A DNA stretch of 64,000 bases from Nitrososphaera sp. (GTDB lineage: Archaea > Thermoproteota > Nitrososphaeria > Nitrososphaerales > Nitrososphaeraceae): positions 1-64,000 of the forward strand of contig JBDUUL010000019.1 of the NCBI GenBank assembly GCA_039938515.1, in the 5' to 3' direction. Under the pieces are notes generated by a model. That model searched no databases. It was not told the DNA's origin and saw only the letters and a list, made by a program, of their open reading frames with translations. Positions 7,348 to 56,943 of this stretch are shown piece by piece (the stretch's first letter is position 1; every line of letters starts with the position of its first letter). A program made the position numbers and the translations under genes.

Positions 7348-8379
7348 CTACCGTGGGTCGACGGGAAAGGCGCCGCAAGTTCTGCAGAATTTCCCCGCAG
7401 TTCTGAACAGCGCCCGACATTCCGGGCAGCGGCCTGCGGAATGATCCATTTCGGAAGAATATGAGTCTGGGGGGTCGAAATACTTGAGATAGCTTTGGTA
7501 GTAGAACATGTGTTCCTTTGACCTTAGTTTCACTTTTTGCGCTGCGGCGGCTTTGGCTCCTCTTGCAAAGTCATCGTCGCTGATGCCAGATTCCAGAATT
7601 GTCTTGATTTCACTCATCCCTGATCCTTCTTCCTGAGCCATCTTGCGCCTCCACGCTAGCTCTGGTCCTATCACCTCTTCAAAGCACCTCCGCAACAAGA
7701 ACTTGCCCATAGAGACGCCGTCATGCGTCCCAACTTTTTCAGAGACATCAAGTGACTTGGAAAATTCCACGAACTCGCTGTCAAGATACGGGGTTGAAAT
7801 TCTGACTCCTTCCGCATGCCCGAGTGCCAGGGATGAAAAGTGCATTACGGACCATAGCCTTTCAAGTTCTTTCTGCAGCCGGGGCAGGTCCGAATGATAG
7901 CGGGTTAGAAAGTTGTAGCCTGCAAACAGTTCGTCTGCCCCGTCGCCTGTCATTAGTTTATCGCATCCTTCGAGCTTGGCTGCGCGGATTCCTTCAAGCA
8001 CCACAAGGGAATTTCTTATCTCTATAGGGTCAAACGTCTTCAGAGTTTTGATTACAGAGTCCACAAGCAAAGGAATAGACTTGTCGCTGACGATCGATAT
8101 ACTGTGACGCTTGCAGAACTTCACGGCCGCCATTTTAGAGTATGCAAAGTCCGGCGCATGAGCGGAAAGGACGACTGTCACTGCCAATTCAGGCCTTGAC
8201 ACCGACGCAAGGATTGCGCTGTCCAGGCCGCCTGAAAGCAGTACGGCGCAAGCGTTGTTTCGCGCACTGCACTTCTCCAGTATGCTGATAAGTTCGTGGC
8301 ATCGGGTATTCTGAGCGCCGCTGTAACTCGAAAGTGCAGATGCGGAAGAACTATCCGGGAATCGGTTGCTACTGGTCAA
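7348..8379 (-). CDS. asparagine-synthase-like PP-loop ATPase with a C-terminal zinc ribbon
   Basis: A 343-residue protein with the ATP-pyrophosphatase signature AVLLSGGLDSAIL (about residue 45) and the asparagine-synthetase motif MTGDGADELFAGYNF (about 140), plus ISTPYLDSEFVEF. The N-terminal glutamine amidotransferase domain of AsnB is absent. In its place there is only a short lead-in, and the C-terminus carries a four-cysteine zinc ribbon (CPEC...CRTC, residues about 317-335). The enzyme probably adenylates a carboxylate and uses free ammonia or an amine, but it may be a diverged amidating or modification enzyme rather than true asparagine synthetase. It ends the minus-strand methylmalonyl-CoA gene run. 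Confidence 0.72.
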   Translation of the reverse strand: MTSSNRFPDSSSASALSSYSGAQNTRCHELISILEKCSARNNACAVLLSGGLDSAILASVSRPELAVTVVLSAHAPDFAYSKMAAVKFCKRHSISIVSDKSIPLLVDSVIKTLKTFDPIEIRNSLVVLEGIRAAKLEGCDKLMTGDGADELFAGYNFLTRYHSDLPRLQKELERLWSVMHFSSLALGHAEGVRISTPYLDSEFVEFSKSLDVSEKVGTHDGVSMGKFLLRRCFEEVIGPELAWRRKMAQEEGSGMSEIKTILESGISDDDFARGAKAAAAQKVKLRSKEHMFYYQSYLKYFDPPDSYSSEMDHSAGRCPECRALFRTAGKFCRTCGAFPVDPR

Positions 8380-13338: not shown

Positions 13339-14340
13339 CTGATGCAAGCCAGACAGCAAGGACTCGACGAGATTGACAAGGCGTTGCTAAACGACATACA
13401 GTGGGTTTTTCCTCTCGCTGAAAGGCCTTACCTTGAGATCGGCAAAAAGCACGGCATATCCGAGCAGGAAGTAATGAGCAGGATTTCGGGCTTGAAGCAG
13501 ATGGGACTAATCCGGCAGATAAACGCGATTTTTGATACGAGAAGGCTGGGCTACAAGAGCGCGCTGGTAGCATTTTCAGTAATCCCCGATAAACTCGACT
13601 GGGTGGCAGAACAGGTCAACAAGCACCCGGGAGTCAGCCACAACTATGAGCGAAACCACGAGTACAACATGTGGTTTACACTGGCTGTTCCCCCCGGCTC
13701 CGACATGAAGGCCGACCTGGACAGGATGGCTTCGCTTGATGGCGTGATAAAGTACCGCCTGCTTCCCACCCTGAAACTGTACAAGATAGGCGTGAGGCTG
13801 GACATGGTAAATTCGGACGCCGAAAAGCCGCAGCCGACAGACGAGGTCAAGCACATGAGCTCTGAAAAGTTGGAGATAACAGAACGCGACAAAGAGTTTG
13901 TCCGCCAGCTTCAGAAAGACCTTCCGGTAGTCGAAGAACCGTTTGCATCTGCCGCTCGGAGCCTGGGCATAACCACAGAGGAACTTTTTGCCAAGGCACG
14001 CGAGTACGAGGCAAGCGGCCTGATGAGGCGCTTTGCAGCGATTCTCAGGCACAGGGACGCGGGCTTTGTAGCAAACGGCATGGTGGTATGGAACGTGCCC
14101 GAGGACAGGGTGGACGAGGCTGGCTTCAAGCTTGCCGAGTTTCCACAGGTCAGCCACTGCTACAGGCGCCCCGTGTATCCGGACTGGAACTACAATGTGT
14201 TTAGCATGGTGCATGCAAGATCGCTTGCCGCCGCGGAAAAGATGGCCGCTGAAATGTCCGCAGCGATTCGGATTGACGATTATAGAATCCTGTTTAGCTC
14301 GCGGGAATTCAAAAAAGAGCGCGTGAAGTACTTTGAATAG
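13339..14340 (+). CDS. ahbAB: fused siroheme decarboxylase (AhbA-AhbB type, NirDL-like)
   Basis: A 333-residue protein made of two tandem AsnC/Lrp-fold halves. Each half has a winged helix (DEIDKALLNDIQ; then TERDKEFVRQLQKDLP), a ligand-binding domain, and the histidine-rich siroheme decarboxylase motif: HNYERNHEYNMWF near residue 101 and HCYRRPVYPDWNYNVF near residue 273. AhbA and AhbB together convert siroheme to 12,18-didecarboxysiroheme in the alternative archaeal haem pathway. Here both are one polypeptide. The ATG at 13339 is preferred over 13315 because a TATA-like run (tttttaat, 13305-13312) lies about 30 nt before it, while 13315 would be inside the promoter; the family also begins near the first winged helix. 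A plain Lrp regulator is unlikely given the duplicated motif. Confidence 0.82.
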   Translation: MMQARQQGLDEIDKALLNDIQWVFPLAERPYLEIGKKHGISEQEVMSRISGLKQMGLIRQINAIFDTRRLGYKSALVAFSVIPDKLDWVAEQVNKHPGVSHNYERNHEYNMWFTLAVPPGSDMKADLDRMASLDGVIKYRLLPTLKLYKIGVRLDMVNSDAEKPQPTDEVKHMSSEKLEITERDKEFVRQLQKDLPVVEEPFASAARSLGITTEELFAKAREYEASGLMRRFAAILRHRDAGFVANGMVVWNVPEDRVDEAGFKLAEFPQVSHCYRRPVYPDWNYNVFSMVHARSLAAAEKMAAEMSAAIRIDDYRILFSSREFKKERVKYFE

Positions 14341-44941: not shown

Positions 44942-45370
44942 TCATGTTTGAGGAGCAAAACAGCCACTTGCGAAAGCGTCTATCATGCTTACATTTGACA
45001 AGGCTGCATTCAAGGTCATGCCGCCAACTCCGCATCCTATTTCCAAGGTCAGAGGATGAAGAGATTGTCCTAATACTGAAATGTAGAGGCGATGGGAACC
45101 AGATTCAATCATTGTAGGAGTATCGACCTGTCTATCTATTGCATATGTAACGCTTGTCATAGGCGTCCCATAGTCATATCTGTCTACACTGACAATTGCA
45201 TCAGGGTACTTGTTCATGAAATACTTGACTTCTGGAACATTGCTGTACCGTGCAATCAATTCTTTGTCAGACAGCAGATTGTCTGAGCGAACAAATTCAG
45301 AGAATATTGCGATGGTAGCAATTCCCAAAGCCAGGCCAACTAATATGGGAATCACAGAGCCTGATTGCAC
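44942..45370 (-). CDS. membrane-anchored protein, small-anchor family (142 residues)
   Basis: N-terminal helix IPILVGLALGIATIAIFSEF, then an outside domain starting VPEVKYFMNKYPDAIVSVD and SVTYAIDRQVDTP, which parallels the 40144-40638 product (LPEVKLLFSKYP, TFDYIVRKSVDT). Two cysteines (EIGCGVGG and ASGCFAP). Start GTG. The pair are clear paralogues despite lying 4.3 kb apart with other exported genes between. Function unknown. Confidence 0.65.
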   Translation of the reverse strand: MQSGSVIPILVGLALGIATIAIFSEFVRSDNLLSDKELIARYSNVPEVKYFMNKYPDAIVSVDRYDYGTPMTSVTYAIDRQVDTPTMIESGSHRLYISVLGQSLHPLTLEIGCGVGGMTLNAALSNVSMIDAFASGCFAPQT

Positions 45371-45490: not shown

Positions 45491-45640
45491 TAAGCAAAGC
45501 CTATATCTCAAGGCAACTGAATTGCTAATACGCACTTTCTGGTCTGCTTGCTGATATTCGCTTTGCTACTGGAGTGTTTACAAACGTCTGCGAGTTTCGC
45601 TGATCAACCCAGCAGCAATGTTTGGAATGTTGGCAAAGGC
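45491..45640 (+). repeat. 150-bp direct repeat, copy 1
   Basis: This stretch covers the promoter and the signal-peptide codons of the 45548 gene and matches 50983-51132, in the same orientation and register, with 8 differences over 150 bases by my count (about 95% identity). Similarity drops sharply at both ends, which indicates recent duplication or gene conversion. Confidence 0.85.
45502..45508 (+). promoter_or_regulatory. TATA-like box, 28 nt before an in-frame ACG
   Basis: tatatct preceded by CC. The first T is 28 nt before an ACG at 45530 that is in frame with the downstream exported-protein gene and just precedes its signal-peptide core. Confidence 0.5.
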
Positions 45641-47113
45641 GTAGGTATTGGCACCTTTGTGAAATACCATGTCGTAGTTAGAGGCATCGGAGACATAGAC
45701 GCCAAACAAATCAACCCATCGATAAATGACGTTTTTAACATAACGCTTCACTTCAAGAGTTTTGATAGCAAATACGGTGCATGGACGGTATCAGTAGACG
45801 AAGAAAACGTCTCTTCTGACCAAGACCAGGGCTTCCCACCACGAAACCTCAATGATACAATCTATCTTGCAGATCAAAACATGTCCATTTTTGCAGACAA
45901 GGACTCGCCGTATAGTGTTCTCAACCGGCAGTCCTTTGCCGTTCCAAATATCTATGGTGATGCGCTTGGTGCAGTGATAATTTGGTTTTCAAAACCCGCA
46001 AAAGACATTTCTGCGGACAGTTCGGTATGTGCCTACCAGTCTTGTGATTGGCGATACCATGTAATTGGAATAGAGAACACGACAACTCCTGCAGGTACTT
46101 TTTCCAACACTACAGTGCTTGCACTTTACGGACCAAACCAAATTGGCAAGTTCACTAGCACTGCCTATATCGACAAGGACTCTCCGTTTCCAATTAAAGG
46201 CTCAATACTTTCGCGGTCAGGTTGCGGCATAAACATAGGACAAGTGAATGGCACGTGCTCTGCAAATATTTCAGATTATGAGCTGATTGGATATCGAAAT
46301 ATCGCCAGTAATGGTAGTGAGCTGACTACCAAGAGCATTACTTGGAATGACCACAGCTATGAAATACGATACTCCATGGTCAATGGAACGGTATCATCTG
46401 CAAATGCCACTAGAGGAAATCTGCACCTATTCCTTAACGATACTGGTCAAGGAGCAGGTCTGCTGACGCTTGAATTACCCTTGCACCTTGTAAAACCACT
46501 GCTTGGAAACGGTAGCGATTCAGAATCCGTGGGAGAGCAACTTGCAGTCTTTGTCTACGACATAGACACAACTAACTTTGTAACAGAATCGACATGCGAC
46601 ACTCTGACAATAAAGATACCCACAGACTTGGGATCGGGTCAGGTCACCGTCGTTGGTTCTGATGGCATAATGGGTGAATATCCAGCACCAGCTCCTACTG
46701 ACGTGGCAAACGTATCTCCTACATTGCAGGTCGATAACAAACAGTTTAGGCTTAATACTTTGACAAATGCAGATAGCTGCAGCTTTTCTTTGGACACTGG
46801 TACGAAGACTCTGCACGTTGCCATCCGAAATCCTGCCTTTAAATCTGGATATATGAAAATCACGCTGCCCCATGAGCTCCTTGGAGGTAACTATACGGTG
46901 CTTGCAGATGGCGAACCTTTTAGCAATTACACTATTCTCGCCGATAATTCAAATCGCACAACAATCGTGACATGGTATAGCCCAAAAGTGGCGTCACTCG
47001 ATATAGTTGGTACATCCGTTGTTCCAGAGTTTCCATCAATACAAGCGGGATTTGCATCGTTAGCGGCTATTTTTAGTGTCATTATTGGTGTGCGAAGAAC
47101 ACGCCATTCCTAA
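45548..47113 (+). CDS. exported protein, GKG module plus two beta modules plus PEF-type tail (521 residues)
   Basis: The signal peptide core is LLIFALLLECLQTSAS, cleavage near FAD. The mature protein starts with the module marked WNVGKGVGIGTF (shared W-x-x-GKG), with AYIDKDSPFPIKGS later. Two cluster beta modules follow (ITWNDHSYEIRYSMVNGT; LQVDNKQFRLNTLTNADS) and close with ASLDIVGTS, then VPEF, helix and RRTRHS. The TTG at 45548 is the first canonical start but leaves a signal peptide without a basic or polar front. The frame stays open upstream to 45521 and includes an ACG at 45530 (HFLVC follows) at the position expected for a leaderless start. Function unknown; cell-surface location likely. 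Confidence 0.72.
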   Translation: MLIFALLLECLQTSASFADQPSSNVWNVGKGVGIGTFVKYHVVVRGIGDIDAKQINPSINDVFNITLHFKSFDSKYGAWTVSVDEENVSSDQDQGFPPRNLNDTIYLADQNMSIFADKDSPYSVLNRQSFAVPNIYGDALGAVIIWFSKPAKDISADSSVCAYQSCDWRYHVIGIENTTTPAGTFSNTTVLALYGPNQIGKFTSTAYIDKDSPFPIKGSILSRSGCGINIGQVNGTCSANISDYELIGYRNIASNGSELTTKSITWNDHSYEIRYSMVNGTVSSANATRGNLHLFLNDTGQGAGLLTLELPLHLVKPLLGNGSDSESVGEQLAVFVYDIDTTNFVTESTCDTLTIKIPTDLGSGQVTVVGSDGIMGEYPAPAPTDVANVSPTLQVDNKQFRLNTLTNADSCSFSLDTGTKTLHVAIRNPAFKSGYMKITLPHELLGGNYTVLADGEPFSNYTILADNSNRTTIVTWYSPKVASLDIVGTSVVPEFPSIQAGFASLAAIFSVIIGVRRTRHS

Positions 47114-47190
47114 TGACTATGATGATTCGACTGGCTTTCAACCGGTAAAGATAGCATTCCGAACAGCTTGAATCTCTCAAGTAAATATTC

Positions 47191-47198
47191 TTAATAAT
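47191..47198 (+). promoter_or_regulatory. TATA-like box before the 47262 gene
   Basis: ttaataat. Counting from 47192, an in-frame ACG at 47220 lies 28 nt downstream. A second A/T run, taaatatt at 47182-47189, lies 27 nt before a TTG at 47209 that is in a different frame. Confidence 0.35.
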
Positions 47199-47261
47199 TG
47201 GAATTGGCTTGCCAAAACCACGCCTTTCATTTCTTGTGCGAAGCTGGTCTTAGCCTCCTGC

Positions 47262-48290
47262 GTGACATTAGTTCTGCTTTGTCTGCCTGCTTATGGCTTT
47301 GCGCAGTCAAGGCTCAACTCTCCATTGGAAATTCAACCTCCACTTCAAGTTGCGTCGCCGGATGGTGATTACAAAGTTGTACTGAACTGGACGCCTGTTA
47401 TCATACGATCAGCCAGCAACGTTACCTTCTCTATTGCCTTTGAAAAAACCAATGGCACAGCCCTGTCAAACGTCACCTATGACTTTGAAGTCAAGGCACA
47501 ACAAGAACCGATAGTACAAAAGAGAAACATTTCAGCCTATGCTATTTCTGAGCAGCAATTGAGACTACCGAATATTGGGCTACAACCTTTGCAGGTCGGC
47601 ATTTATGTTATATCTATCAACGGGATGCCCGTTGACCACAGTCAAACGTCTTCTTTCAATTTGTACATGATTCCAACAGACACTGAGATGCGGCAATGCA
47701 GTTCACTTGGTATTGTTGAAGATAACTGTAACATCGAGCATGTGGCATTTTTCTCGTCTACCAATCAACCTGTGTTTATCCTAAAGACGCAAGGTGGCAA
47801 AGTCCCTCTAGACGTAGGTGTTGAGCCAATCTGGGGCAGCGATGGCAACGTACAATTCAAAATCAACTTTTCTCCATTGCAACAAAACAATGCGCTTACT
47901 CCGTCTGTTCACTATGACCTCAAGATATTCAGAGACAATGGAACCGCTGTTTCAGCTGAACCTGTCTACGATTATGTGAGGACACTTATGATAAACTGTC
48001 CTCCTGTAGGATACTTTTGTTCCTTTGCCGTTGCACACAATGGGACAACTATAGTTCCAGACGTGTCTTCTAATTTGCCGCTAAAACTTGACGCAGGCAA
48101 CTACAGGCTCAGAATTGAGGTGTACAGCGTATATGCCAATCAATCAGACGATCCTAATAGTCCTGCAGTTGTGGAAATGCCAATACAGGTTACGCCAGAA
48201 TATCCATTTGCACAGGCAAGTATTGGAGTGCTGGCGGTTGCCTTTGGTGCAATTGTTGGTCTTGGACGAAAGACGCATTCTTTCAGATGA
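47262..48290 (+). CDS. exported protein with PEY-type sorting tail (342 residues)
   Basis: From GTG 47262 the product begins with a short hydrophobic stretch (TLVLLCLPAYGFAQS). The open frame extends upstream to give a fuller signal peptide from ACG 47220 (PFISCAKLVLASCV). The mature protein has two related beta domains; the second (VPLDVGVEPIWGSDGNVQF, then VHYDLKIFRDNGTAVS and LDAGNYRLRIEVYSVY) is shared with the C-terminal half of the 48417 product. The tail is VTPEYPFAQ, helix SIGVLAVAFGAIVGLG, basic RKTHSFR. Same gene style as its neighbours. Function unknown. Confidence 0.7.
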   Translation: MTLVLLCLPAYGFAQSRLNSPLEIQPPLQVASPDGDYKVVLNWTPVIIRSASNVTFSIAFEKTNGTALSNVTYDFEVKAQQEPIVQKRNISAYAISEQQLRLPNIGLQPLQVGIYVISINGMPVDHSQTSSFNLYMIPTDTEMRQCSSLGIVEDNCNIEHVAFFSSTNQPVFILKTQGGKVPLDVGVEPIWGSDGNVQFKINFSPLQQNNALTPSVHYDLKIFRDNGTAVSAEPVYDYVRTLMINCPPVGYFCSFAVAHNGTTIVPDVSSNLPLKLDAGNYRLRIEVYSVYANQSDDPNSPAVVEMPIQVTPEYPFAQASIGVLAVAFGAIVGLGRKTHSFR

Positions 48291-48343
48291 CCGCAAGGCT
48301 TCGACTGGCTATCAAGTGGAAAGAATAGCAGCTGGATAAAACC

Positions 48344-48350
48344 TATATCT
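48344..48350 (+). promoter_or_regulatory. TATA-like box, 28 nt before an in-frame ACG
   Basis: tatatct preceded by CC, the same 9-mer as at 45500-45508. The first T is 28 nt before an ACG at 48372, which is in frame with the exported-protein gene that has its first canonical start only at 48417. Confidence 0.5.
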
Positions 48351-48416
48351 TAATGCAGATGCATTCGTCGTACGAATATCATACTTTATCTCACGATACT
48401 TTGCTGCTTTGCATTC

Positions 48417-49622
48417 TTGCTATCTCTGCCCTCAACATGTATTGCCCAAAAGCCGTTGAGTTCAAACAACACTAATCCAGACAATACTTGGTATTTCGGT
48501 AAGGGAATCAAGCCCCACAGTTACTTGCTCTACAAGTACGGAAGCTATTCTGTTGACAACAATGGAACAATGACCCTTGGTTCCAGTGAGTATTACTTTG
48601 CGGTGTACTATGACCACTTCGATAATTTGACAAGCTCTTGGAGCGGCAAGGTAATTACAAACCAAGTAAGCCCAACATCGATTAACAATTTCACCTTGGT
48701 TCCCCGTCGGGCTATCGGCGATACTAATCTTGTTTACAACTACCATGAGAATGCTGCTGGCTCGTTGACTAAGCGGCAGGAAGCCCTAGATCAAGCTGCA
48801 AGAAACTACAACTTTGGCGTACATATGCTGTACGAGTACGCTCCTTATCCCAGGAGCCTTTCTGACAGCAACTGGTCTTCAGTAGACCACCCGGCATCTT
48901 ATGCCAAACTGAACGGAACCAAGATGGTGACCGTAGAAGCTGGAACATTCAACTGCACTGAATTGGACGTAAAGGATGGATACTGGGAGGACAACAAGGC
49001 ATGGATAAACAAAGACCTGCCGTTGCCCGTCAAGGGCTCGTCTTATACGAGCTCTAACGGTACATCTCATCATTACGTCAAATACTATTCAACTTATCGT
49101 CTCGCGGCAATAGGCAACAACATGCCAACGGTGGCGGAGTTTCCACCAAAGACGGCTACTATGGTTTATTCCATGAATGGTCAAGTGCCAGTAGACGTGT
49201 CAGTCATGCCAATCTGGACGCAAGGGGGCAATGTACGATTTAACCTCACCTTTTTCCAAAAGGGGACGTCTATGCCACAGGCAGCAAACTATGATCTGTG
49301 GATTCTAAATCAAACGGGCAAGGTGGTTTACAAGGAAACAAGCTACGGGGTTTATACTGTGCCACCAGAATTGCAAGTCTCAAAGGGTGCAACTTCTCAA
49401 ACAACGGTACCCGACGATCCGACAAGAAATATCCATCTTGAAAATGGAAACTATGTTGTCAGAGTGATAGTAGTCGGTGTTGATAATAATCCCATTGACA
49501 CGGAGAGCGTAGATTTTCCAATGCAGGTGACACCGGAATTGCCATCAATGCAAACAGGGATTGCAGCATTGACAGTTGCCTTGGGCGTAATTATCAGTCT
49601 TCGAAGAATACGCCAATCGTAG
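48417..49622 (+). CDS. exported protein, GKG module plus PIW-type beta domain plus PEL-type tail (401 residues)
   Basis: From TTG 48417 the product starts LSLPSTCIAQ, which is only the end of a signal peptide. Reading the same frame upstream to ACG 48372 gives NIILYLTILCCFAFLLSLPS, a complete hydrophobic core. The mature protein starts with the GKG module (TWYFGKGIKPHSYLLYKYGS, YYDHFDNLTSSWSGKV), matches the 51040 product over about 230 residues, then switches to the domain found in the 47262 product (VPVDVSVMPIWTQGGNVRF). Tail: VTPELPSMQ, helix, LRRIRQS. A mosaic of its two neighbours. Confidence 0.72.
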   Translation: MLSLPSTCIAQKPLSSNNTNPDNTWYFGKGIKPHSYLLYKYGSYSVDNNGTMTLGSSEYYFAVYYDHFDNLTSSWSGKVITNQVSPTSINNFTLVPRRAIGDTNLVYNYHENAAGSLTKRQEALDQAARNYNFGVHMLYEYAPYPRSLSDSNWSSVDHPASYAKLNGTKMVTVEAGTFNCTELDVKDGYWEDNKAWINKDLPLPVKGSSYTSSNGTSHHYVKYYSTYRLAAIGNNMPTVAEFPPKTATMVYSMNGQVPVDVSVMPIWTQGGNVRFNLTFFQKGTSMPQAANYDLWILNQTGKVVYKETSYGVYTVPPELQVSKGATSQTTVPDDPTRNIHLENGNYVVRVIVVGVDNNPIDTESVDFPMQVTPELPSMQTGIAALTVALGVIISLRRIRQS

Positions 49623-49669
49623 CGGCTGCGCGCTGCTGGTTATCTCATGCAATGATAATATTCGCTGGC

Positions 49670-50251
49670 TTAGTAGCTATCAACTGTTATTATCTGGGAT
49701 TTTCCCAAATCTGCAAAGCTGGTATTTGCATACAATGTATGGTAAACAGGCTCGGTAAAATTACTTACACCGGAAGGACGATATGACACCGTGTAAGGAG
49801 CAGCCTGTACCTGTATGTGTACAAAGTCGCCCGGAGTGAGCCGAGCGGTATTGAACAATTGTATATGCTGAGACGGCGGCAACTCCGCCCAGCCTTCGGT
49901 GCTGTCCGCTGCAAAGCAATCGCCGCTTTGTTCGTCGCAAACCCGATATCCAATTATCGATATTGTACGCGGCGACGCTACGAAAAGTGTATACATTGAC
50001 ACGTGACACGGAGAGAAAGGACAGGAGACAGGTGCTCTTAGCACATACTCGACCTTGGCGCTAATCTGAAGAGGATTAGCGGCAGACCAAGGGGCATCTC
50101 GCAATATGTCTGTAGCCTGCTGCTGAGGCGAAGGATAAGTAGTAGTCAAAAGGACCCAGACTGGCAGGATTATTCCAATTGCGATGGCGGTGCCAGCTAG
50201 TATCCATATTGTTTGCCTGCTCATGTCGCGTTCAGGTGCTGAATCTGACAT
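49670..50251 (-). CDS. membrane-anchored hypothetical protein (193 residues)
   Basis: An N-terminal basic segment and helix (RQTIWILAGTAIAIGIILPVW) anchor an outside domain with four cysteines (SCPFSPC, RVCDEQSGDC), likely two disulfides, and beta strands such as TPGDFVHIQVQAAPYTVSYR. The ATG at 50251 is chosen because it begins 4 nt after the stop codon of the upstream anchored-protein gene; the ATG 14 codons earlier would overlap that gene. The two form an operon. Function unknown. Confidence 0.6.
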   Translation of the reverse strand: MSDSAPERDMSRQTIWILAGTAIAIGIILPVWVLLTTTYPSPQQQATDILRDAPWSAANPLQISAKVEYVLRAPVSCPFSPCHVSMYTLFVASPRTISIIGYRVCDEQSGDCFAADSTEGWAELPPSQHIQLFNTARLTPGDFVHIQVQAAPYTVSYRPSGVSNFTEPVYHTLYANTSFADLGKSQIITVDSY

Positions 50252-50255
50252 GAAT

Positions 50256-50891
50256 TCACTTGTACCACTGCGGGTCTGTAGGCAAACAGTCATAGTTCTT
50301 CAGTTCTTGAATGGCTGCAGTATCATAGCCGTTGTACGGCTCATTCGCATAGGAATGAGTTGCTCCTCCTCCCCCTATACTTCCAAATGAGCCTTGACTT
50401 ATGCAATCATAGTCCGAGCTAACAGGCTGCCAAACTCCACCAGTATGGTTAACTCGAACGGAGAGGATCAGAGTCATAGAGAGACGCATCCGCTCATAAT
50501 TTGAGGCTGTCACATTCCCAGTGCTGTTGTCAAATGGAATGCCACTAGGATTGAGAATGCCGCCTGTCTTGATGTCATGATATGCGATATAGGGTACATA
50601 CTCCTCAAATCCAACTGTCGACGAGCCATTAGTACTCTGATTGTAGATAAGCGAACCGCTTGCTAAGCTGACATTTGCCTTTGGATAAAGGTAGAGAAAT
50701 GCCCTTGCAATCGAAGTAGTCTTGGCACCATCGATAGCCGTTTCATTAGCCGGATTTGTAAAAGAGCCAAGAACTTGGATATTTGATGCAGGCGGTAAGA
50801 CTGGGGCTAGTATGGCAAATACTACAATGAATGCAATGCCGGTTGCCAGACCCGTGACCACCGCAGCAGTCAAGGCGTTACCCTGAAGCAC
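50256..50891 (-). CDS. membrane-anchored protein, small-anchor family (211 residues)
   Basis: N-terminal helix AAVVTGLATGIAFIVVFAIL belongs to the V-x-GLA-x-G anchor type of this cluster. The outside domain includes KTTSIARAFLYLYPKANVSL (compare KYP region of the relatives), MRLSMTLILSVRVNHTGGV and a glycine-rich turn near QGSFGSIGGGG. Two cysteines near the C-terminus. Followed by the 193-residue anchored protein 4 nt downstream. Function unknown. Confidence 0.62.
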   Translation of the reverse strand: MLQGNALTAAVVTGLATGIAFIVVFAILAPVLPPASNIQVLGSFTNPANETAIDGAKTTSIARAFLYLYPKANVSLASGSLIYNQSTNGSSTVGFEEYVPYIAYHDIKTGGILNPSGIPFDNSTGNVTASNYERMRLSMTLILSVRVNHTGGVWQPVSSDYDCISQGSFGSIGGGGATHSYANEPYNGYDTAAIQELKNYDCLPTDPQWYK

Positions 50892-50982
50892 AGTTGTGAT
50901 TTGAAGAGAAGTTCAAAATGAATTTTATGTTCGTGCAAAGTCCCGGTCGTGACTTCAATGACTTACTAGTGGCAATAAGGTC

Positions 50983-51132
50983 TAAGCAAAGCCTATATCT
51001 CAAGGCAACTGAAATGCTGATACGCACTTTCTGGTCTGCTTGCTGATATTCGCTTTGCTAGTGGGGTGTTTTCAAACGTCTGCGAGTTATGCTGATCAAC
51101 CCAGCAGCAATGTTTGGTATGTTGGCAAAGGC
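50983..51132 (+). repeat. 150-bp direct repeat, copy 2
   Basis: Matches 45491-45640 with 8 differences by my count. Like copy 1 it includes the promoter and signal-peptide codons of the gene that follows. The flanks are unrelated. Confidence 0.85.
50994..51000 (+). promoter_or_regulatory. TATA-like box, 28 nt before an in-frame ACG
   Basis: tatatct preceded by CC. The first T is 28 nt before an ACG at 51022 that is in frame with the 51040 gene. An ATG at 51014, 20 nt after the T, is in another frame and meets a stop after ten codons. Confidence 0.5.
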
Positions 51133-51840
51133 ATCAAGCCCAACACTTACTTGCTTTACAAGTTCGGGAGCTATTCTATCAATATTAATGGGACCGTAAG
51201 CTCGGACACTTCCAAAGACTACTATCTGGCAGTATACTTTGACCACTTCGACAACTCCACAGACTCTTGGAATGGCAAAGTTCTTACAAATCAGGTAAAC
51301 CCGATTTCAATAAACAACTTCACGTTTTCTCCCCAGAAAGTGAATGGCTGGTATGTCGCCTATAACTATAATGCTCCCTGCATTGATTGCATAACACCAC
51401 AAGAGGCTGCCCTAGACGAGGCTGCAAGAGTCTTTGGCTACCTTCAGCGATTTGGAGATTTCTTTCCATACCCCGGTAAGAGCCTAAGCACTAATTCAGT
51501 CACCTCGACAATTAGTCCTTTGAGTACTGCTATAATCAACGGAACGCGATTGATTACAGTCGAGGCTGGAACCTTCAATTGCACGGAATTGGAAGGTGAA
51601 GGCTCTACAGCATGGATAAACCATGAACTGCCGTTTCCAGTCAAGGGTTCGTCTTTTAATGGAGAATCATATTCGTCGGCTACAAAACAAGGATTCATGT
51701 ATTACACCTCATACCGTCTTGTGGCTATGGGTAACAATTTTCCGACAGTGCCAGAATTCCCGTTTATGCCAGCAAGTATCGGAGTCTTGGCGGTTGCCTT
51801 TGGTGTTATTATTGGTCTGCGAAGAATGCATCAGCCTTAG
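51040..51840 (+). CDS. exported protein, GKG module with PEF-type tail (266 residues)
   Basis: Signal peptide core LLIFALLVGCFQTSASYAD. The mature part is essentially one GKG module (VWYVGKGIKPNTYLLYKFGS, YFDHFDNSTDSWNGKVLTNQ, ELPFPVKGSSF) that matches the N-terminal half of the 48417 product, followed directly by VPEFPFM, helix ASIGVLAVAFGVIIGL and RRMHQP. It is the shortest member and defines the module boundary. The first canonical start is TTG 51040; ACG 51022 is in frame upstream at the leaderless position. Function unknown. Confidence 0.72.
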   Translation: MLIFALLVGCFQTSASYADQPSSNVWYVGKGIKPNTYLLYKFGSYSININGTVSSDTSKDYYLAVYFDHFDNSTDSWNGKVLTNQVNPISINNFTFSPQKVNGWYVAYNYNAPCIDCITPQEAALDEAARVFGYLQRFGDFFPYPGKSLSTNSVTSTISPLSTAIINGTRLITVEAGTFNCTELEGEGSTAWINHELPFPVKGSSFNGESYSSATKQGFMYYTSYRLVAMGNNFPTVPEFPFMPASIGVLAVAFGVIIGLRRMHQP

Positions 51841-52278: not shown

Positions 52279-52356
52279 ATGCAAGCCAGTCTTGCTACCT
52301 TCCTAACGGTCATTGGTTCGGCCATTGTTCTTGCACGCAAGAGAACTCGCAGTTAA
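52279..52356 (+). pseudogene. remnant of a sorting-tail gene
   Basis: A 25-codon frame reads QASLATFLTVIGSAIVLARK and ends RTRS. This is the hydrophobic helix plus basic end of the PEF-type tail (compare QAGFASLAAIFSVIIGV-RRTRHS of the 45548 product). Just upstream, in the next frame, the bases read TPIFNYAS, a possible decayed VTPE-type motif. No protein body precedes it. It looks like the broken 3' end of another family member. Confidence 0.4.
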
Positions 52357-52940: not shown

Positions 52941-52947
52941 TATATCT
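52941..52947 (+). promoter_or_regulatory. TATA-like box, 28 nt before a TTG start
   Basis: tatatct, the same core as at 45502, 48344 and 50994. The first T is 28 nt before TTG 52969, which opens a textbook signal peptide. This calibrates the spacing used to interpret the sibling genes. Confidence 0.5.
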
Positions 52948-52968
52948 CCTCGTCTTGATTGGAACTTG

Positions 52969-53553
52969 TTGCGGACAATTCTCTATCGGACAATCGTCGC
53001 CGTTTTCCTTTTAGTCTCTTGGGTTTTCGTCACCTGCGATGGCGCGTCATTCATTGTATTTCCGACCGCTTATGGCGCTGTTCCGGACAAGTTCACCTCA
53101 TTTGTGCTGCACTCATCGGATAACCAGAATTATGTGATTAGCGGCAGAACTGACTGCAGCGACCTTATGGCAAACTACACAAGCGGATTTACTGTTAGCC
53201 CCCAAGACCGGTCTATTGAAATTCATTTCAAGGGTCGGAATGGAGATAATTATCCCGGATGTGTAATCGAGCTCGCACTTCCTCGCTCCCTTATCGACAA
53301 TTTAACCTACATCGATATCGACGCGTCAGATTACCGCGTGGGTGCCCATATCGTAAAGTCTTCTGTTAACGCGACACACACTGTTGTCAGTTTTAATGCG
53401 TCCGACAGTGACCATCACGACATTATTATGACAGGGATGATGGTAGTCCCTGAATTTGGCGGAAAGCTGATAGCCCCTCTGAGCATAGCTTTGGCAGTAT
53501 TAATGCCGCTTGTGATTAAGCAGCGTTTCCGAATCAAGAATGGCAAAATGTGA
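52969..53553 (+). CDS. exported protein with PEFG-CTERM-like tail (194 residues)
   Basis: TTG 52969 is chosen over upstream in-frame TTGs (52936, 52966) by TATA spacing and because RTILYRTIVAVFLLVSWVF is then a complete signal peptide. The mature protein is one cluster beta module (NYVISGRTDCSDLMANYTSG, RSIEIHFKGRNG, CVIELALPRSLIDNLTYID, HDIIMTGMM) followed by VPEFGG, helix LIAPLSIALAVLMPLVI and KQRFRIKNGK. The same order of elements occurs in the 43906-44835 product. Function unknown; surface location likely. Confidence 0.72.
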   Translation: MRTILYRTIVAVFLLVSWVFVTCDGASFIVFPTAYGAVPDKFTSFVLHSSDNQNYVISGRTDCSDLMANYTSGFTVSPQDRSIEIHFKGRNGDNYPGCVIELALPRSLIDNLTYIDIDASDYRVGAHIVKSSVNATHTVVSFNASDSDHHDIIMTGMMVVPEFGGKLIAPLSIALAVLMPLVIKQRFRIKNGKM

Positions 53554-56838: not shown

Positions 56839-56943
56839 CGCCGGGAGAGGGATTTGAACCCTCGGGACCCTCACGGGTCACGAGCTGGCTGGAAAACTCC
56901 AACTATTCCAGGCTCGCGCCCTTCCGGGCTAGGCGACCCCGGC
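56839..56943 (-). tRNA. trnS-GGA: tRNA-Ser(GGA) with a 19-nt intron
   Basis: Read on the minus strand: acceptor GCCGGGG/TCCCGGC with discriminator G, D arm GCC/GGC, anticodon stem CGAGC/GCTCG, a long variable arm GACCC-GTGA-GGGTC (class II), and T arm GAGGG-TTCAAAT-CCCTC. The anticodon loop is CU-GGA-A...A and is interrupted between positions 37 and 38 by 19 nt (56887-56905). CTGGAA of the loop can pair with TTCCAG of the intron, giving the bulge-helix-bulge form cut by the archaeal splicing endonuclease. GGA plus long arm and discriminator G indicate serine. CCA is not encoded. Confidence 0.93.

What the first reader, a model, noticed from the sequence alone, without database searches (positions are those of the whole stretch)
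45491..51060. Four exported-protein genes with in-frame ACG where the start codon is expected
In the genes at 45548, 48417 and 51040, the identical box CCTATATCT is followed at exactly 28 nt (from its first T) by an ACG that is in frame with the protein and opens a complete signal peptide (45530, 48372, 51022). The 47262 gene has the same ACG (47220) 28 nt after a weaker TATA-like run. The first ATG/GTG/TTG in frame lies 18-45 nt further on and leaves a truncated signal peptide. The sibling gene at 52969 has the same box at the same 28-nt spacing with a TTG, and 27317 (GTG) and 26676 (ATG) fit the same spacing, which calibrates the rule. Leaderless initiation at ACG is the simplest reading; a -1 frameshift from out-of-frame starts at 45522, 47209 and 51014 (each opening a short basic peptide that stops where the hydrophobic frame begins) is an alternative. 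Either would be unusual translation shared by one protein family.
Basis: partly seen in the sequence, partly recalled or inferred. Interest (0 to 1): 0.8.

Follow-up and report, generated by a model that had tools for sequence, protein, structure and literature searches.

The report
Surface-protein genes probably start at ACG
In this Nitrososphaera-like archaeon, four surface-protein genes and at least one conserved housekeeping gene have an ACG where the mRNA is predicted to begin and where ATG, GTG or TTG is expected, and a second conserved gene shows similar non-standard start codons across its genus, so the ribosome probably begins at weak start codons that annotation misses.

Summary
ACG at 45530, 47220, 48372 and 51022 is in frame, opens a full signal peptide and lies 28-29 nt after the TATA box. 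A promoter motif learned without reference to these genes shows that most genes here are leaderless, with the start codon about 28-33 nt after the TATA core. The four are not independent: 45530 and 51022 share a 150-nt, 95% duplicate, and the box-to-ACG segment of 48372 is probably homologous. In the whole genome TATATCT + 20-22 nt + ACG occurs 8 times; only these three open an ORF longer than 30 codons.

The feature is not confined to one family. NEP1/EMG1 in the same genome has no canonical start before its domain and an ACG 28 nt after TATATA. The DUF99 gene lacks any canonical start in 8 of 13 same-genus genomes, with ATC, ATA, ATT or ACG near the predicted mRNA 5' end; outgroups have ATG or TTG. 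A sugar-isomerase-like gene has CTG where orthologs have ATG.

Leaderless near-cognate initiation is the best explanation (0.6). Programmed frameshifting is not supported. There is no transcript or protein evidence. By-product: a BHB-type micro-intron in carB.

The parts
45502..45508 (+). TATA box TATATCT of gene 1
   Evidence: motif model
45530..45532 (+). ACG, proposed leaderless start codon of gene 1, 28 nt after the first T of the box
45530..47113 (+). gene 1: exported protein (signal peptide 45530-45601, PEF-type C-terminus); first canonical codon TTG 45548
47191..47196 (+). TATA core TTAATA of gene 2, best-scoring promoter of the four
47220..47222 (+). ACG, proposed leaderless start codon of gene 2, 29 nt after the core start
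   Evidence: start score 4.63
47220..48290 (+). gene 2: exported protein (signal peptide 47220-47303); first canonical codon GTG 47262
48344..48350 (+). TATA box TATATCT of gene 3
48372..48374 (+). ACG, proposed leaderless start codon of gene 3 (ATC 48378 and ATT 48363 are weaker alternatives)
48372..49622 (+). gene 3: exported protein (signal peptide 48372-48446); first canonical codon TTG 48417
50994..51000 (+). TATA box TATATCT of gene 4
51022..51024 (+). ACG, proposed leaderless start codon of gene 4
51022..51840 (+). gene 4: exported protein (signal peptide 51022-51093); first canonical codon TTG 51040
45491..45640 (+). 5' tract of gene 1, 95% identical to 50983-51132 of gene 4
50983..51132 (+). 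5' tract of gene 4, copy of the tract at 45491-45640
52941..52971 (+). sibling promoter TATATCT with canonical TTG at 52969, the same 28-nt spacing

Best explanation
Transcription starts at, or within a nucleotide or two of, the A of ACG, directed by a TATA box 28-29 nt upstream. The leaderless mRNA presents ACG at its 5' end and the initiator Met-tRNA is placed there despite the mismatch at the second codon position, so translation starts with Met and yields a full-length signal peptide. The same tolerance of near-cognate codons at the 5' end of leaderless mRNAs (ACG, AUC, probably AUA and AUU) serves other genes of this genome and genus. Shown: positions, frames, promoter statistics, and recurrence in NEP1 and DUF99. 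Inferred: the transcript 5' ends, actual initiation at ACG, and any reason for it, such as low expression from weak starts.
For: An unsupervised BRE/TATA motif at leaderless spacing precedes about 65% of 158 intergenic ATG starts; YTATAW-to-ATG spacing peaks at 29-30. ACGs score 0.24, 0.24, -1.32 and 4.63 as leaderless starts; the 95th and 99th percentiles of internal codons are -0.38 and 1.51. All four have pyrimidine at -1 and A at +1. Only 8 box-spacing-ACG sites exist in the genome and only the cluster's three open long ORFs. NEP1: no canonical start before the domain, ACG 28 nt after TATATA, complete EMG1 domain from it, E=2e-54. DUF99: no canonical in-frame start in 8 of 13 same-genus genomes, ATC the top or joint-top TATA-offset codon in G000, G001 and G003, ACG scoring 4.6 in G012; outgroups ATG/TTG. 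Sugar-isomerase-like gene: CTG where three orthologs have ATG. ORFs intact although the shared 5' tract has diverged about 5%.
Against: No 5'-end or peptide data. Promoter resolution is about one codon; neighbouring in-frame codons score alike, and ATC 48378 scores above ACG in gene 3. Spacing 28 is 1-2 nt shorter than the peak; if transcription began at the G of ACG the codon would be lost. Three of four cases share ancestry. GUG is weak and UUG inactive on short-leader mRNAs in Haloferax (PMC4574771), and aIF1 discriminates against non-canonical starts (PMC8211752). No close orthologs of the four genes were found. Ortholog comparison with G014 found no further cases. In G011, G014 and G015 the DUF99 promoter scores are weak.
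Confidence: 0.6

Rival explanations
1. Initiation is at another codon close by: a different near-cognate (ATC 48378, ATA 48381 or ATT 48363 in gene 3; ATT 47229 in gene 2), or the canonical TTG 45548/51040 after a short leader with a shorter signal peptide. The ACG is incidental.
For: ATC 48378 scores 0.70 against -1.32 for ACG 48372; ATT 48363 would give a classical Arg-Arg signal-peptide start. TTG 45548/51040 leaves an 18-residue hydrophobic stretch. Many genes of this genome appear to have short leaders of 10-25 nt.
Against: TTG 48417 leaves 10 residues and GTG 47262 leaves 14, too short for a signal peptide. Only ACG sits at the same offset in all four, with ACG making up 1.3% of codons. 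NEP1 repeats it.
Confidence: 0.2
2. Start-codon loss: these paralogs lost ATG by mutation and are poorly or not translated, in a region where surface-protein genes duplicate and decay.
For: A C-terminal remnant of a paralog lies at about 52280-52355. The recent shared tract shows no suppression of amino-acid changes (dN 0.068, dS 0.047).
Against: Four uninterrupted ORFs of 272-527 codons. The two copies sharing the ACG tract have diverged about 5%, for which several stops or frameshifts would be expected in neutral sequence (estimate, not a tool result). Long-term constraint between genes 3 and 4: pS 0.79, pN 0.31. Does not explain NEP1 or DUF99.
Confidence: 0.1
3. Frameshift, micro-intron or assembly indel joining an out-of-frame ATG/TTG start (45522, 51014, 47209, 48359) to the main frame.
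For: The out-of-frame peptides MLIRTFWSAC and MPKPRLSFLVRSWS have basic n-regions, and the two differences between the duplicates there (TTG/ATG, CTA/CTG) are silent in that frame. carB in this genus carries a BHB-type micro-intron. Possible 1-nt frame breaks occur elsewhere (trpE-like L045, MFS L033).
Against: Starts 45522 and 51014 are only 20 nt after the TATA core (scores -4.9, -4.1); 47209 scores -1.15 and 48359 -8.1. The direction differs for gene 3. No slippery heptamer or BHB-like hairpin seen on reading the sequence. The same sequence at two separate loci argues against a sequencing error.
Confidence: 0.07
4. C-to-U RNA editing turns ACG into AUG before translation, as in plastids.
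For: The codon is ACG in all four genes and in NEP1, the only near-cognate that one C-to-U change turns into AUG.
Against: The equivalent codon in DUF99 is mostly ATC, ATA or ATT, which C-to-U editing cannot turn into ATG. Archaeal C-to-U editing of mRNA is not known to me.
Confidence: 0.02

Closest known systems
GUC-initiated leaderless mRNA in Halobacterium salinarum (Srinivasan, Krebs, RajBhandary 2006, cited in PMC4574771)
   Same: Archaeal leaderless mRNA beginning at a codon other than AUG, GUG or UUG
   Different: An experimental result in a haloarchaeon with another codon; here ACG/ATC/ATA/ATT occur naturally, in several genes and, for DUF99, across a genus, but only by sequence inference
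Archaeal leaderless genes with AUG, GUG or UUG (PMC7531240, PMC5316973)
   Same: TATA box at fixed distance from the start codon; no leader, no Shine-Dalgarno
   Different: The codon at the 5' end is a near-cognate
Non-AUG initiation in eukaryotes, e.g. ACG in yeast ALA1 (from own knowledge)
   Same: ACG read by initiator Met-tRNA with eukaryote-like factors
   Different: Eukaryotic cases use scanning and a leader; here no leader
Programmed -1 frameshift in Saccharolobus alpha-L-fucosidase (PMC8211752)
   Same: Archaeal gene without a single open frame from a canonical start
   Different: It has a slippery heptamer A-AAA-AAT and a stem-loop; neither was seen here

Membership tests
Archaeal leaderless gene | TATA/BRE at the spacing that puts the transcript start on the start codon | tested here: met
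   Core to ACG 28-29 nt; genome rule 28-33 with peak 29-30
Archaeal leaderless gene | Transcript 5' end at the start codon | not testable with these tools
   Needs 5'-end mapping
Archaeal leaderless gene | AUG, GUG or UUG as start codon | tested here: not met
   ACG at the predicted position in all four genes
Near-cognate (non-AUG) initiation | No canonical in-frame start that gives the complete functional protein | tested here: met
   Clear for genes 2 and 3 (14 and 10 residues of signal peptide left), NEP1 and DUF99; ambiguous for genes 1 and 4
Near-cognate (non-AUG) initiation | Codon one mismatch from AUG conserved at the start position in relatives | tested here: inconclusive
   Met for DUF99 across the genus and for one CTG gene; no close orthologs of the four genes themselves
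Near-cognate (non-AUG) initiation | Protein starting with Met from that codon | not testable with these tools
   Needs N-terminal proteomics
Programmed -1 frameshifting | Slippery heptamer in the overlap of the two frames | tested here: not met
   None in the overlap on reading; frame relation differs between genes
BHB-type mRNA intron | Bulge-helix-bulge between an upstream start and the main frame | not tested
   Only looked for by eye in the four genes, none seen; present in carB
Dedicated initiator tRNA for ACG | Initiator-type tRNA with CGU anticodon | tested here: inconclusive
   One CGT tRNA among those typed, an ordinary tRNA-Thr; about 15 of the 40 Rfam tRNA hits were not typed by ARAGORN

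The most novel reading that the evidence does not exclude
Nitrososphaera-type archaea define the start of leaderless mRNAs largely by 5'-end position rather than by codon identity, so that ACG, AUC, AUA and AUU are natural, conserved start codons in about 1% of genes, including the rRNA methyltransferase NEP1.
Probability: 0.45. Interest if true: 0.78.

Novelty: new variant of a known kind. Interest (0 to 1): 0.6.

Why it matters
Archaeal gene finders accept only ATG, GTG and TTG, so such genes are truncated or missed. If confirmed, an archaeal ribosome with eukaryote-like factors tolerates near-cognate codons when the mRNA has no leader. How a leaderless start is chosen, by the 5' end or by the codon, then becomes directly testable with DUF99, NEP1 and these surface genes.

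Tried and rejected
EM over all 61 possible start codons failed because coding bias swamped the start signal. Pfam and NCBIfam gave no family for the four proteins. DNA of the promoter region in 40 relatives: own-genome matches only. Ortholog start comparison between 772 kb of G000 and 400 kb of G014 gave no further ATG-to-near-cognate change, so the phenomenon is rare. A G014 sample of 375 genes showed the carB intron but no clear new near-cognate leaderless start. Literature searches for ACG starts in archaea found nothing in the held library. The whole genome was not available as a file, so a sample of stretches was used. Rfam found no structured RNA in 40-58 kb of the window.
Full report
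Setting. The window is C19:1-64000 of a 2.56-Mb, 24-contig, 99.8% complete genome (G000) with 17 same-genus genomes held. That it is Nitrososphaera-like is my inference from size, GC, promoter type and protein families; no tool named it. The finding lies in a low-GC stretch (43-47% at 40-56 kb against 52-57% on either side) that carries paralogous exported proteins with a signal peptide, a WYVGKGxKP motif and a C-terminal PEF/transmembrane/arginine tail. Pfam and NCBIfam give no family for the four.

The observation. All coordinates are right. Starting at the ACGs the proteins begin THFLVCLLIFALLLECLQTSASFA-DQ (45530), TPFISCAKLVLASCVTLVLLCLPAYGFA-QS (47220), TNIILYLTILCCFAFLLSLPSTCIA-QK (48372) and THFLVCLLIFALLVGCFQTSASYA-DQ (51022). 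The first canonical codons leave 18, 14, 10 and 18 residues before the likely cleavage sites. Genes 1 and 4 share a 150-nt 5' tract at 95%, and the segment between box and ACG of gene 3 is probably homologous to theirs (12 of 21 identical, shuffle mean 5.3, P about 0.002). There are therefore two or three evolutionary cases, not four.

The leaderless rule. An unsupervised motif search upstream of 158 intergenic ATG starts recovered a BRE/TATA motif with weight 0.65, its start peaking 35-38 nt before the ATG. For YTATAW boxes the first T lies most often 29-30 nt before ATG (9 and 4 sites; 28-33 hold 21). The ACGs fall at 28 (three) and 29 (47220). The model scores them 0.24, 0.24, -1.32 and 4.63; the 95th and 99th percentiles of internal codons are -0.38 and 1.51, so genes 1 and 4 are above the 95th, gene 2 far above, and gene 3 is not exceptional. 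Resolution is about one codon. In genes 1, 2 and 4 ACG is the best-placed near-cognate; in gene 3 ATC 48378 is also possible.

Genome-wide specificity. TATATCT followed by 20-22 nt and ACG occurs eight times in the whole genome, fewer than the reversed-pattern control (14), and only the three in this cluster open more than 30 codons. ACG is 1.3% of in-frame codons in the sample.

Other genes. In a 772-kb sample I listed genes whose coding signal extends upstream of the first ATG/GTG/TTG (15 genes). Several are conserved. NEP1/EMG1 (L056, minus strand): the frame opens only 7 codons before an ACG that stands 28 nt after TATATA; from that ACG the EMG1 domain is complete (residues 5-228, profile 1-197 of 197), while the first canonical start, GTG, lies 33 codons downstream. 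DUF99/Endo_dU (L057, minus strand): ATC 28 nt after TATATC, no canonical start before the domain. A xylose-isomerase-like protein (L029): CTG where three orthologs have ATG. A DUF488 protein (L053) has ACG-ATT before its domain with a weak promoter. An exported protein (L047) has ATC near the TATA offset.

DUF99 across the genus. Of 13 same-genus sequences inspected, 8 (G000, G003, G005, G007, G011, G012, G014, G015) have no ATG/GTG/TTG between the upstream stop and the conserved EKKG motif; G001 has only a TTG inside the promoter spacer. ATC is the best or joint-best TATA-offset codon in G000, G001 and G003; ACG scores 4.6 in G012, ATA 2.4 in G007, ATT 1.6 in G005. In G011, G014 and G015 the ATC promoter scores are weak (-1.1 to -0.1). 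G004, G008, G010 and G013 have a TTG or GTG in frame. Order-level outgroups have ATG or TTG at the corresponding Met. The arginines just upstream of the conserved Val/Ile/Leu-His are kept with synonymous codon changes, so this region appears to be translated. This is the strongest evidence that near-cognate codons act as starts in these archaea, ACG among them.

Rivals. A frameshift needs different directions (-1 from 45522, 47209 and 51014; +1 from 48359), has no slippery heptamer, and its starts are badly placed for the TATA box (scores -4.9, -1.15, -4.1, -8.1). The duplicates' differences in that frame are silent (TTG/ATG, CTA/CTG), which keeps this alternative alive at low weight. Start-codon loss in decaying genes is disfavoured by four intact ORFs and by NEP1 and DUF99. 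The proteins were under constraint in the long run (pS 0.79, pN 0.31 between genes 3 and 4), though the recently shared tract shows no suppression of amino-acid changes. A dedicated initiator tRNA was not seen among the tRNAs typed, which were not all. C-to-U editing is unlikely because the DUF99 codons are mostly ATC, ATA and ATT.

Literature. GUC initiation on a leaderless mRNA is reported for Halobacterium (Srinivasan 2006, cited in PMC4574771). In Haloferax, GUG was weak and UUG inactive on short-leader and leaderless reporters (PMC4574771). A review of archaeal initiation lists AUG, GUG and UUG only (PMC7531240). aIF1 discriminates against non-canonical starts (PMC8211752). I found no report of ACG starts in archaea in the held library, which lacks most subscription papers.

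Verdict. Observation confirmed, interpretation partly supported: leaderless ACG initiation is likely, but as part of a rare, genome-wide and, in DUF99, genus-wide use of near-cognate starts, not as a peculiarity of one family. It remains a sequence inference until transcript and protein ends are mapped.

Noticed in passing
L049 11700-11860 (G000:C6 about 71.7-71.9 kb); same position in L092-L102 and L104: carB is interrupted after ...KIGEAGE by a variable insert (40 nt in G000, about 20-35 nt in most others) with conserved ends GGCGAAAGCCAG...CTGGCCGCAAATTYGAC; the fold is bulge-helix-bulge-like with two compensatory pairs in G032, and G013 lacks it. It looks like an archaeal pre-mRNA micro-intron conserved across the order. 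I found no report of it in the held library.
   Followed up: partly
L045 minus strand 13537-13600 and L033 minus strand 7700-7760: A TrpE-like gene and an MFS gene look as if a 1-nt difference separates an upstream ATG/TTG start from the main frame; real frameshift, sequencing error or non-canonical start is not resolved.
   Followed up: partly
window 52280-52355: A short C-terminal remnant (MQASLATFLTVIGSAIVLARKRTRS) of a paralog of the surface-protein family, a sign of gene duplication and decay in the cluster.
   Followed up: no
window 56839-56943, minus strand: A tRNA-like gene with probable intron, found by the whole-genome RF00005 search (E 1.5e-6) but not by ARAGORN or by the gathering-threshold Rfam scan of the window; it stands at the edge of the low-GC stretch and may mark an integration boundary.
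   Followed up: no
window 44942-45370 and 50256-50891, minus strand: Two paralogous minus-strand genes share the start context ATC[AG]CAACTGTGC with GTG 36 nt after TAAA[AG]TT, longer than the usual leaderless spacing; possibly short-leader transcripts.
   Followed up: no
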